Below, in pieces: positions 43,575-46,972 of a stretch of DNA of 64,000 nucleotides. Source of the DNA: Pseudomonadota bacterium. Its GTDB lineage: Bacteria > Pseudomonadota > Gammaproteobacteria > Steroidobacterales > Steroidobacteraceae. The translations under genes and the position numbers were made by a program. The stretch spans positions 22,180 through 86,179 of the forward strand of contig JAJYDK010000012.1 in the NCBI GenBank assembly GCA_021777555.1, written 5' to 3'. Within the stretch, counting starts at the first letter, position 1. Each line of letters begins with the position of its first letter. The notes beneath the pieces are model-generated. The model saw only the letters and a program-made list of their open reading frames with translations. It ran no database searches and was not told the DNA's origin.

Positions 43575-44459
43575 TTAGACGGCTCCTGCTTCGAGGATCC
43601 GCACCATGGCTCGCTTGAGCGCCTCGCGGCGCTCCGGACTCAGGAGGGTCTTCGGGATGATGTACAGGACATGCTCGAGCCGATCCTGTTCGTGAAAGAG
43701 CACGCCATGGGCGGCGCCATGGACGGGGATGTTGCGGTACGAGCGGTGATTTCTTGGCTTTCCTCCGGATGGGGTGATGAGCAGCTCGTAGATCGCCCGG
43801 GCTGAAAGGCGGGAGGACCTGTTTGAGATTGCACGGGCCCGGGCGGAGATGACATCTCGCCTGTCGTCCTCGTTCCACAGCTTGAACAGCTCGACCCCCC
43901 AGCCTTCGCGGATGTCGGCGGAAGATGGGAAGGCGCTGACGATGAGGCTCGGCAGTTGCGCCAGCATCAGCAGCCGTGAGACGGCGGAGTGGGAGAGACC
44001 GAAGGCCCGGGCGAGGTCCTCCTGGGAGGGATAGGTGTCCGAGCGGAACGCCCGCCAGAGAATCTGTCCGCGCACATACGGACTGTCTTCTTCCCGGAGG
44101 AGGTTTTCCTCGTACATCGCGACGTAGGCGTCGGCATCGCTCATCTGTCGAACTTCCACGAGAAGATCGCGTCCGAGGGTGCGGGCGACGGCGTGCCGCC
44201 GCGCACCGCAGATGATCTCGATGTCGCACTCGGGGTCCTCGCTCACCGGGCGACCCAAGGCGGGTTGATGCTGGCCATTGCGGGCAATCGACTCGCGCAG
44301 CGATTTGCAGGCGTCGTCGGTCAGCTGCTCCTCGGGACGGCTGTGCTGGATCCATACACGGCAGCGGAATGGGCTCACGATCCGGCGCGCTCCGCGGCGC
44401 TCGGCCGTTGGTTCCTGCCGAGATGCCCCGCGCATCAGGCGCTCTGCCCCGACACTCAC
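43575..44459 (-). CDS. Orphan ParB/RepB/KorB-like DNA-binding protein
   Basis: IICGARRHAVAR, EENLLREEDSPY, HTH (SQEDLARAFGLSHSAVSRLLMLAQLP); GTG start overlaps the upstream stop. Confidence 0.85.
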   Translation of the reverse strand: MSVGAERLMRGASRQEPTAERRGARRIVSPFRCRVWIQHSRPEEQLTDDACKSLRESIARNGQHQPALGRPVSEDPECDIEIICGARRHAVARTLGRDLLVEVRQMSDADAYVAMYEENLLREEDSPYVRGQILWRAFRSDTYPSQEDLARAFGLSHSAVSRLLMLAQLPSLIVSAFPSSADIREGWGVELFKLWNEDDRRDVISARARAISNRSSRLSARAIYELLITPSGGKPRNHRSYRNIPVHGAAHGVLFHEQDRLEHVLYIIPKTLLSPERREALKRAMVRILEAGAV

Positions 44460-45349
44460 GCGCCCGCCCGATAGAAGACCTTCAGCTCTTCGGCAATCGC
44501 CTCCGGGAGGGCGTCAAGCGCCGGGAGGGTGTGCGAGGTGCTCTCAAAGAGCACTGCGGGATTCTGTCCCTCGTACCCGCCCAGGTTTGGCCGATGGATG
44601 CGGTAACCGAGCAGGTCGCGCAGCGCGCTCGGGAACTGCCGGGCGAGCTGCGGGGGATAGCTGAGGAAGGCGTTTTCGTACTGCTTCAGCCAGCCCAGGC
44701 AGTAGCTCACGATGAGCCCGGTTCGCGGCGCGTCCGCGCGGTTGGCGCCGCCACAGTGGGTGAGTGAGCCCAGGTAGACCAGTGCCGACCCTCTGGGCAT
44801 TTCCGCCACCGTGGCCCGTGCAAGGTCGAGTTCGCGCGTGGGCCCGTCCATCGCGGCGTGAGGCCAGAGGAGCGTGGCGCCATTTCGGGCGGTGAAGTCC
44901 GTGAGCGCCCACATCACGTTGACCAGGTATTCGATACCGCTCTTCGGGCAGGGCCACATTTCCTCATCCCGATGGGGCACCTGCTGCCGCTCTCCCGGAT
45001 GCAGCCGCACCGCCTGAGTCAGGTTGAGCTGATACCAGTCACAGTGCGGTCCGAGCACACCGTCCATGAGGGACAGCATCAGGGGATGCAGCGCCAGGGC
45101 GTGAGTGCTCGCAGACTTGAGCAGCACGGAGCCGAATCGAGTGGTACTCCAGCCGTAGAAATCACCCTGACAACGCGGCGTCGCCGCGAACCAGGGCTCG
45201 AGCTCCTCACACAGGTGCTCTACGGTCTGCTCCGGCAGCAGCCTGTCGAGTATGACGTAGCCGTTCGCGCGCAGCAGCTCGAGCGGTGTGATTCCAGGGT
45301 CGCTCGCGGCAGAGGCGTCAATGCGGATCGACGATGGGGCGTCAGCCAT
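44456..45349 (-). CDS. Phytanoyl-CoA dioxygenase (PhyH)-family Fe(II)/2OG oxygenase
   Basis: NGYVILDRLLP; HRD facial-triad motif (VPHRDEEMW) with distal H (SLTHCGGANRADAPRTGL). Confidence 0.85.
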   Translation of the reverse strand: MADAPSSIRIDASAASDPGITPLELLRANGYVILDRLLPEQTVEHLCEELEPWFAATPRCQGDFYGWSTTRFGSVLLKSASTHALALHPLMLSLMDGVLGPHCDWYQLNLTQAVRLHPGERQQVPHRDEEMWPCPKSGIEYLVNVMWALTDFTARNGATLLWPHAAMDGPTRELDLARATVAEMPRGSALVYLGSLTHCGGANRADAPRTGLIVSYCLGWLKQYENAFLSYPPQLARQFPSALRDLLGYRIHRPNLGGYEGQNPAVLFESTSHTLPALDALPEAIAEELKVFYRAGA

Positions 45350-46091
45350 GGCGGGACTCTCCGTGAGACGGGCGATTCGGCGGCTCTGCCCGGGGCCGGG
45401 GGTCCTGCTCGGGCACTGTGAAAGGCGAGTCGATCGCCTCGGGGGCTCTTCGCTCGATCCGCTCTCGAACAGGCGGTGGTTCGGCCGCATGGATCCGGGT
45501 GACGGGGATCCGGATACCGTGGCGCTCGCGCACGGTGCGCAAGCTCGCCGCGGTGATCGTCGCGCCGGCGGCGGTTACCTCGTCCTGCCCGTCGCGCACA
45601 GGAGGGCCCAGCGTCCTCGCATCCCAGCCGCACTGCAGCGCAAGGGGCAGCAGGGCGTGGCCAGCGGCGAAGATGACCTCGTCGATCCCGTACACGAGCC
45701 CTGTCTCGAGGATCCCGCAGATGATCTCCCACAGGAGCGCATGCCGCCGGCGTGGACCGCGAATGTCCGGGGATGTGCAGAACCGCGAGGCCTCCCACAC
45801 CGTCTCGCCGCGGGGCATCTTGTTTCGATCCGCGGCGTCGAACAGATCGCACATCAGGTGCGGTCCGGTCGTGGTGAGCAGCCGCAGGGAGGCGAGGACC
45901 GGACCATCGACGCGCGCTTTGGCGAGCAGGTAGAGGGTGTCCTCGCGGTCGTAGGCATCGATTTCCCGATCCCCGATCACCGGAACCGTCCATCCGGCGC
46001 CATCGACGAAGACGATCTTGCGCTGGCGGTGCATGTCCGCGAGGTCCGCCGCAAATAGTCGGCGGTTTTCTGCGTTGACGACCAGGATCAT
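45342..46091 (-). CDS. Acyl-homoserine-lactone synthase (LuxI family)
   Basis: FVDGAGWTVPVIGDREIDAYDREDTLYLLA, VLASLRLLTTTGPHLM, VWEASRF. Confidence 0.88.
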   Translation of the reverse strand: MILVVNAENRRLFAADLADMHRQRKIVFVDGAGWTVPVIGDREIDAYDREDTLYLLAKARVDGPVLASLRLLTTTGPHLMCDLFDAADRNKMPRGETVWEASRFCTSPDIRGPRRRHALLWEIICGILETGLVYGIDEVIFAAGHALLPLALQCGWDARTLGPPVRDGQDEVTAAGATITAASLRTVRERHGIRIPVTRIHAAEPPPVRERIERRAPEAIDSPFTVPEQDPRPRAEPPNRPSHGESRHG

Positions 46092-46160
46092 CCGATGACC
46101 TCCGTGGCGCGAAGGTCACAGGATGCAACAATGTGCGGCTGCGGCGAAAGTCTCTCGTTG

Positions 46161-46182
46161 GATGACACTAATCAGTGTCGTC
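46161..46182. promoter_or_regulatory. lux-box-like inverted repeat (GATGACACTAATCAGTGTCGTC)
   Basis: Near-perfect dyad centred about 80 bp upstream of luxI start, between luxR stop and luxI start. Confidence 0.6.
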
Positions 46183-46216
46183 TATCCAGAGGACAGGGAA
46201 GTGCAGGCGTCGGTGA

Positions 46217-46972
46217 TCAGCGCCGCGGCGCCGGCAGATCGTGCGGGGAAATCTGGCCGGTGATCAGTGCCCTCGCAACCGCGGCGGTGCGGCTCTTCAC
46301 ACCCAATCGCATCTTGAGACGCTCGATGTACGTGTGCGCTGTGGATTTCATCATTCCCAATGCTGAGGCGACTTCGGCATCGGTTTTGCCCTGCGCGATG
46401 AGCAGCACGCATTGACGCTCACGGTGGCTGAGATTGCATGTCGCAATGGGCTCGTGCGCGACCCGGATGCGACCCAGCACCGACACCAGGTGGTTGGCCA
46501 GTCCTTCGACGACGAAGTAGCTGCCGAGCCCGATTCGGGTGTTGCCGGGCACGATGGAACAGGAGGCGGGCAGGGGGTTCGGGGAGGCCATCGGGTGGAC
46601 GGGGAAGGTGAACCCGTGAGCGATGCCGAGCGCAGCGGCATCGGCAAGCATCTTGCGCTGCGGCAGCGTGAGTGAGGTGCGAAACGCCCTGTCCCAGAAG
46701 AACGGTTCCTCTTCACGCTCGGCGCGTCGCAGGACCGGATCGATCGCGTAGAGCTTCTGTTCGCTGAACCGCCTGACCCACGCCGCCGGGTAGTTGTGCA
46801 GCATGATGGCATGCGCCGGCGGATGCACTGGATCGACGTGCGAGAGGCAGGCGAAATAGCGAAACCCGAGGCGCTCGATGGCTTTGCGGAAGGCGGTGGC
46901 GAGGGAGTCGACCGAAACGTCCTTTTGCCCGCAGATCTCGATGAAGGACTGCAGCGTATCAGTTGTTTTCAT
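46217..46972 (-). CDS. LuxR-family autoinducer-binding transcriptional regulator
   Basis: Autoinducer-binding domain (FRYFACLSHVDP...) and C-terminal LuxR HTH (LSHRERQCVLLIAQGKTDAEVASALGMMKSTAHTYIERLKMRLGVKSR). Confidence 0.9.
   Translation of the reverse strand: MKTTDTLQSFIEICGQKDVSVDSLATAFRKAIERLGFRYFACLSHVDPVHPPAHAIMLHNYPAAWVRRFSEQKLYAIDPVLRRAEREEEPFFWDRAFRTSLTLPQRKMLADAAALGIAHGFTFPVHPMASPNPLPASCSIVPGNTRIGLGSYFVVEGLANHLVSVLGRIRVAHEPIATCNLSHRERQCVLLIAQGKTDAEVASALGMMKSTAHTYIERLKMRLGVKSRTAAVARALITGQISPHDLPAPRR

What the first reader, a model, noticed from the sequence alone, without database searches (positions are those of the whole stretch)
43575..46972. Quorum-sensing operon luxR / luxI-phyH-parB abutting the lasso locus
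Seen: luxI, phyH and parB-like genes overlap (luxI stop 45342 vs phyH start 45349; phyH stop/parB GTG overlap at 44456-44459). The parB stop lies 6 bp from the convergent ABC exporter stop. Inference: a coupled signalling module possibly linking cell density to lasso peptide biology; this combination is not one I recognise as described.
Basis: partly seen in the sequence, partly recalled or inferred. Interest (0 to 1): 0.8.

Follow-up and report, generated by a model that had tools for sequence, protein, structure and literature searches.

The report
Quorum-sensing operon tied to lasso-peptide locus
A bacterial cell-density signalling operon sits beside genes for making a knotted antibiotic-like peptide, and the pairing recurs in many unrelated bacteria far more often than chance allows, so the peptide is probably made only when the population is dense; this genome's unusual twist is a ParB-type DNA-binding protein where most relatives carry an ordinary regulator.

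Summary
luxR-luxI-phyH is already described in sphingomonads, and one paper lists a 'lassopeptide-homoserine lactone' hybrid region. The wider pattern was not found described in the papers searched. In 34 of 71 PhyH-anchored loci with enough flank, the order is luxR-luxI-phyH-[gntR or parB]-A-B-C. In an independently drawn sphingomonad sample, 6 luxI genes in 4 genomes have lasso B2 about 2.1-2.2 kb downstream on the same strand (expected 0.016). In the window's family, 4 of 14 luxI genomes have B2 within 10 kb (expected 0.015). ParB is an orphan (no ParA on the contig; a canonical ParAB lies elsewhere) and fills the slot held by GntR in relatives. Best explanation: AHL quorum sensing gates lasso-peptide production, with ParB probably a CTP-dependent transcription regulator and PhyH probably acting on the signal. 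Expression control is inferred; no lux box was found before the lasso genes here.

The parts
46217..46972 (-). luxR-type AHL receptor/regulator
   Evidence: Autoind_bind 95.7 bits and GerE 44.7 bits, both over cut-off
46162..46183 (.). lux-box-like palindrome GACGACACTGATTAGTGTCATC (luxI sense), about 70 bp upstream of luxI
   Evidence: Only match in the window at <=2 mismatches, exact; related loci carry their own, mostly perfect, palindrome in the same luxR-luxI gap
45342..46091 (-). luxI-type AHL synthase
   Evidence: Autoind_synth 84.5 bits; catalytic residues present; only luxI in the genome
44456..45349 (-). phyH: Fe(II)/2-oxoglutarate oxygenase of the PhyH family
   Evidence: PF05721 79 bits; H126, D128, H198, R209 present and invariant in 26 aligned sequences; natural LuxI-PhyH fusion P0032
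43575..44459 (-). orphan parB: ParB_N plus HTH
   Evidence: PF02195 and TIGR00180 over cut-off; model pLDDT 85.7, matches ParB, Noc and KorB; no AAA_31 ParA hit on its contig
41754..43568 (+). ABC exporter, convergent with parB (mechanical ORF from 41670; 41754 is the more likely start)
   Evidence: ABC_tran and ABC_membrane; start choice by inspection of the translation
41708..41726 (.). candidate operator palindrome GCCACCCAGGTTGGGTGAC in the abc/A divergent promoter region
   Evidence: Similar block at the same place in L009; weak: 9 of 200 shuffles reach the local match score
41373..41465 (-). lasso precursor A: MIHYEGSVKQETK|GFIPALVEAGQPGQQVG, predicted ring Gly1-Glu8
   Evidence: Strong Shine-Dalgarno; leader resembles L009 and L150 precursors and 30 of 36 QS-lasso loci carry a precursor of this general pattern
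40599..41354 (-). lasso B (leader peptidase, Transglut_core3)
   Evidence: PF13471, NF033537 65.3 bits vs 33
38583..40589 (-). lasso C (macrolactam cyclase)
   Evidence: PF00733; lasso/macrolactam cyclase models, below their cut-offs
36590..38719 (+). lasso isopeptidase-like protein
   Evidence: NF033523, 72.9 bits, below its cut-off of 400; homologues sit at this place in relatives
33914..36559 (+). TonB-dependent receptor
   Evidence: PF00593, PF07715
32432..33706 (+). FecR-like anti-sigma factor (mechanical ORF start)
   Evidence: PF04773 71 bits
31989..32597 (+). ECF sigma factor (FecI-like)
   Evidence: Sigma70_r2 and r4_2

Best explanation
An acyl-homoserine-lactone quorum-sensing operon controls production of the neighbouring lasso peptide. 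LuxI makes the signal; LuxR binds it and activates the luxI-phyH-parB operon from the palindrome upstream of luxI. PhyH most likely hydroxylates the signal or its acyl precursor. In relatives the transcript can run straight on through a GntR gene into lasso A-B-C, so the peptide is made at high density. Here an ABC-exporter gene on the other strand separates the two units, and the orphan ParB, in the GntR slot, most likely relays the signal by binding the divergent promoter between exporter and precursor. Shown: gene identities, operon geometry, conserved linkage, ParB orphan status. Inferred: LuxR activation, PhyH substrate, ParB as regulator, density-gated peptide production.
For: Conserved order luxR-luxI-phyH-[gntR|parB]-A-B-C: lasso C within 8 kb on the same strand in 34 of 71 loci with enough flank; phyH end to lasC start 0.9-1.9 kb in 30 of the 34. 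Unselected sphingomonad draw: 6 luxI (4 genomes) with B2 2.1-2.2 kb downstream on the same strand, expected 0.016; own family 4 genomes within 10 kb, expected 0.015. Sphingomonas canadensis has three separate such modules. In those loci phyH, gntR, B and C are closely spaced or overlap on one strand. Palindromes upstream of luxI in Steroidobacteraceae-type loci including the window. 24 of 32 luxI in the unselected sample have phyH directly downstream (my tally), and a LuxI-PhyH fusion, P0032, exists, so PhyH belongs with the signal. ParB: KorB (RK2 transcriptional repressor) gives the best whole-fold TM-score; at E<1e-30 ParB is absent from the other genomes of a 369-genome class sample; canonical ParAB lies on another contig.
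Against: No expression data. No copy of the luxI box before the lasso genes in the window or relatives. The exporter gene lies between, so simple read-through cannot work here. The candidate ParB site is weak. The regulator-lasso association (Fisher 8e-9) rests on only 3 changes of the regulator on the tree, so it is not independent evidence. Many luxI-phyH loci have no lasso genes, and most lasso loci in this family have no luxI nearby. G028 has luxI by a lasso locus without a recognisable phyH. LuxI homologues alone make 3-hydroxy-AHLs in Agrobacterium (PMC5012321), so PhyH is not needed for that hydroxyl.
Confidence: 0.6

Rival explanations
1. PhyH is a tailoring enzyme of the lasso peptide (as CanE hydroxylates canucin), and the quorum-sensing genes are simply its promoter neighbours.
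For: CanE, also an Fe/2OG hydroxylase, acts on a lasso precursor (PMC8498205); PhyH is close to lasso genes here and in relatives; its nearest solved relatives are natural-product tailoring oxygenases such as AndA, PrhA, SptF.
Against: PhyH follows luxI in many loci with no lasso genes directly downstream (37 of 71) and is fused to LuxI in P0032; cores vary widely among loci while PhyH stays conserved.
Confidence: 0.2
2. Proximity only: the quorum-sensing operon and the lasso locus are separate units kept close by co-transfer, with no regulatory link in this genome.
For: Separate transcription units here; no shared box; most lasso loci in the family lack luxI and many luxI lack lasso.
Against: Same order and strand in two classes, with near-constant spacing and close or overlapping gene ends in alphaproteobacteria; adjacency needs at least 7 changes on the tree.
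Confidence: 0.25
3. ParB is a partition protein of a former plasmid or integrated element, with no role in regulation.
For: Passes ParB family models; distant matches on two plasmids.
Against: No ParA on the contig and a canonical ParAB pair elsewhere in the genome; parB follows phyH in every ParB-bearing PhyH locus; it takes the place of gntR; plasmid matches are only 36-39% identical over 60% of the protein.
Confidence: 0.1
4. The lasso peptide, imported by the TonB receptor and cut by the isopeptidase, feeds back on the quorum-sensing operon, i.e. the lasso system is an input rather than an output.
For: Complete import and degradation side with FecI/FecR-type sigma control next door.
Against: No evidence that FecI targets luxR/luxI; the conserved alphaproteobacterial order places lasso genes downstream of luxI-phyH.
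Confidence: 0.1

Closest known systems
Sphingomonad novR-novI-phyH loci (Gan et al. 2013 PMC3704786; 2015 PMC4288048; 2016 PMC5012321)
   Same: luxR upstream of luxI, phyH directly downstream; one (novINsub3) noted with a GntR gene after phyH.
   Different: The words searched for lasso genes do not occur in the two texts checked and no ParB is described; here ParB replaces GntR and the host is a gammaproteobacterium.
antiSMASH 'lassopeptide-homoserine lactone' hybrid region, Sphingomonas sp. So64.6b (PMC9716278)
   Same: AHL synthase and lasso genes in one predicted region.
   Different: Listed in a table; no analysis of order, conservation or regulation was seen in the passages read; no ParB.
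luxR-linked biosynthetic gene clusters (Brotherton et al. 2018, PMC5872303)
   Same: General idea that Proteobacteria place LuxR regulators beside natural-product clusters.
   Different: The word lasso does not occur in that text; no phyH/gntR/parB module described there.
KorB of plasmid RK2 (ParB-family transcriptional repressor)
   Same: ParB_N plus HTH fold; best whole-fold TM-score among PDB hits.
   Different: KorB acts with KorA on plasmid promoters; here no KorA was identified and no operator is tested.
Proteobacterial lasso loci with TonB receptor, isopeptidase and FecI/FecR
   Same: A, B, C, isopeptidase-like protein, TonB receptor, FecR, ECF sigma factor all present.
   Different: Coupled to a quorum-sensing operon.

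Membership tests
LuxI/LuxR AHL quorum sensing | LuxI family match and conserved catalytic residues | tested here: met
LuxI/LuxR AHL quorum sensing | Adjacent LuxR with autoinducer-binding and HTH domains | tested here: met
LuxI/LuxR AHL quorum sensing | lux-box-like palindrome upstream of luxI | tested here: met
LuxI/LuxR AHL quorum sensing | AHL produced and sensed | not testable with these tools
   needs AHL profiling
luxR-luxI-phyH module of sphingomonads | Same gene order with homologous PhyH | tested here: met
QS-lasso supercluster (luxR-luxI-phyH-regulator-A-B-C) | Lasso B and C downstream on the same strand within 8 kb | tested here: met
   window order
QS-lasso supercluster (luxR-luxI-phyH-regulator-A-B-C) | GntR regulator between phyH and A | tested here: not met
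   ParB in that slot
Lasso peptide cluster | Precursor with Thr at leader position -2, Gly1 and acidic residue 7-9 | tested here: met
   MIHYEGSVKQETK|GFIPALVE...; compare
Lasso peptide cluster | B and C enzymes | tested here: met
Lasso peptide cluster | Threaded product | not testable with these tools
   needs expression and mass spectrometry/NMR
ParAB partition system | ParB_N and HTH | tested here: met
ParAB partition system | Cognate ParA next to ParB | tested here: not met
   No AAA_31 hit on C52; canonical ParA/ParB on C84
KorB/VirB-like ParB transcription regulators | CTP-binding and HTH motifs (GxRR, ENxxR, HTH) | tested here: met
   GARR and ENLLR in the sequence; the G, RR, EN and R columns are invariant in alignment A2. 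CTP binding itself not tested
KorB/VirB-like ParB transcription regulators | Binds operators and changes transcription | not testable with these tools
   needs EMSA/ChIP and reporter assays
PhyH Fe(II)/2OG oxygenases | HxD...H iron ligands and 2OG-binding Arg | tested here: met
   H126, D128, H198, R209

The most novel reading that the evidence does not exclude
In Steroidobacteraceae an orphan ParB CTPase clamp has been recruited in place of a GntR regulator to relay an AHL quorum signal to a lasso-peptide operon: a ParB protein working as a pathway-specific transcription factor in a natural-product cluster.
Probability: 0.35. Interest if true: 0.8.

Novelty: new variant of a known kind. Interest (0 to 1): 0.62.

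Why it matters
Few lasso peptides have known triggers or natural roles. A widespread quorum-sensing-lasso module would make many silent clusters switchable with a known class of signal, would suggest that these peptides serve dense populations, and gives a testable role for the luxI-linked PhyH, whose reaction is still undescribed (PMC5012321). The ParB variant would extend the ParB clamp to regulation of a biosynthetic locus.

Tried and rejected
Single-box model in which LuxR binds the same palindrome before luxI and before lasso A: not found in the window or in relatives. Shared palindrome between abc and A as a ParB site: kept as a weak candidate only, 9 of 200 shuffles as good. ParB as the chromosomal partition protein: rejected. 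Defence-system reading: no PADLOC hits. PhyH structure prediction failed (pLDDT 40) and was not used. Fisher p 8e-9 for regulator vs lasso kept only as description because it is not phylogenetically independent. L005 first looked like a ParB locus without lasso genes, but its stored flank ends inside what looks like the gene that precedes lasB in L150, so it is undecided.

Full report
WHAT IS THERE. The four genes are exactly as described: luxR 46972-46217, luxI 46091-45342, phyH 45349-44456 and parB 44459-43575, all minus strand, with overlaps of 8 and 4 nt and a 6-nt gap between the parB and ABC-exporter stops. Each passes curated family models. Past the convergent exporter (to 43568, +) comes a lasso locus: precursor A 41465-41373, B 41354-40599, C 40589-38583 (all minus), then isopeptidase-like protein, TonB receptor, FecR and ECF sigma factor on the plus strand. 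The precursor MIHYEGSVKQETK|GFIPALVEAGQPGQQVG has Thr at -2, Gly1, Glu8 and a clear Shine-Dalgarno. Its leader resembles those of L009 and L150.

ORGANISM. The closest named homologues are Steroidobacteraceae MAGs. The genome has one luxI and a second lasso locus on another contig.

CONSERVED NEIGHBOURHOOD. A PhyH-anchored scan gave 80 named loci. Profile searches show luxI before phyH in all 80 and luxR in 74. Of 71 loci with at least 4 kb downstream, 34 have lasso C on the same strand within 8 kb, in the order luxR-luxI-phyH-regulator-A-B-C, often with the isopeptidase on the opposite strand beyond. The regulator is GntR in alphaproteobacteria and some Steroidobacteraceae, and ParB in the others. 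Lasso C directly downstream never occurs without the regulator (34 with, 0 of 22 without), but the regulator changes only 3 times on the PhyH tree, so this is not independent evidence. Precursors fitting the lasso pattern were found in 30 of 36 loci.

CHANCE. The 80 loci are selected for PhyH, so two independent draws were used. Among 81 sphingomonad-family genomes, 23 carry 32 luxI matches; in those 23, 20 lasso B2 were found; 6 luxI in 4 genomes have B2 2.1-2.2 kb downstream on the same strand, expected 0.016. That sample includes its centre genome, Sphingomonas canadensis, which was chosen because it has the module and supplies 3 of the 6; the other three genomes were drawn without regard to it and are still far above expectation. 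Among 150 genomes of the window's family, 14 have luxI and 33 have lasso B2 over the cut-off; 4 (the window's own genome among them) have B2 within 10 kb downstream on the same strand, expected 0.015. By my tally, 24 of the 32 luxI have phyH downstream, including all six lasso-linked ones.

REGULATION. The luxR-luxI gap holds a 22-bp palindrome, GACGACACTGATTAGTGTCATC (46162-46183). Relatives carry their own palindromes at the same place, such as TCCTCTGATCAGAGGA and TGAGCCAATTGGCTCA, as expected for lux boxes that vary with their LuxR. No second copy lies before the lasso genes. In alphaproteobacteria the luxI-to-lasso genes are closely spaced or overlapping on one strand, so read-through is plausible. 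In the window the exporter gene on the other strand blocks that, so a relay is needed. ParB, in the GntR slot, is the natural candidate: it has the ParB_N and HTH motifs, folds confidently (pLDDT 85.7) and matches ParB, Noc and the RK2 repressor KorB, has no ParA on its contig, and the genome has a canonical ParAB elsewhere. Beyond this family it was absent at E<1e-30 from the other genomes of a 369-genome class sample. On the PhyH tree the parB/gntR state needs at least 2 changes. A palindrome between abc and A is shared with L009, but the match is weak.

PHYH. It stays with luxI whether or not lasso genes follow, and is fused to LuxI in P0032, so it most likely acts in the signal branch. It is not needed for 3-hydroxy-AHLs, because LuxI homologues alone make these in Agrobacterium (PMC5012321). 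Lasso tailoring, as by CanE (PMC8498205), is the main rival.

WHAT IS KNOWN. luxI-phyH is published (PMC3704786, PMC4288048, PMC5012321), the last noting one GntR gene after phyH; the lasso-related words searched do not occur in the latter two texts. A lassopeptide-homoserine lactone region is tabulated in PMC9716278. Full-text searches found no paper describing the luxI-phyH-gntR/parB-lasso module; subscription papers were not searchable, so prior description cannot be excluded.

VERDICT. A real and conserved quorum-sensing-lasso module, here in a ParB variant; regulation of the peptide by cell density is likely but unproven.

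Noticed in passing
L004:11803-12783, L150:7521-8534, L005:11747-12760: In the second ParB subgroup a ~330-aa protein that looks like a REP-associated transposase (MARxRRxEFPGALHLV...; by eye) directly follows parB; no Pfam match. L149 has a similar transposase-like frame in the same slot.
   Followed up: partly
window 43575-43577: The closest database ParB (P0121) reads a lysine where the window has the TAA stop and continues PTSKTSS, which would overlap the exporter's end; the 6-bp spacing is therefore not fixed among strains.
   Followed up: no
G000:C110:38961-39335 (L158): A second lasso B/C locus in the same genome without luxI nearby.
   Followed up: no
P0032: Natural LuxI-PhyH fusion of 513 aa.
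   Followed up: partly
L014, L015, L017, L031, L054, L072: Two candidate lasso precursor genes per quorum-sensing locus.
   Followed up: no
L064 genome (G516): Sphingomonas canadensis FWC47 carries three separate luxI-phyH-lasso modules.
   Followed up: partly
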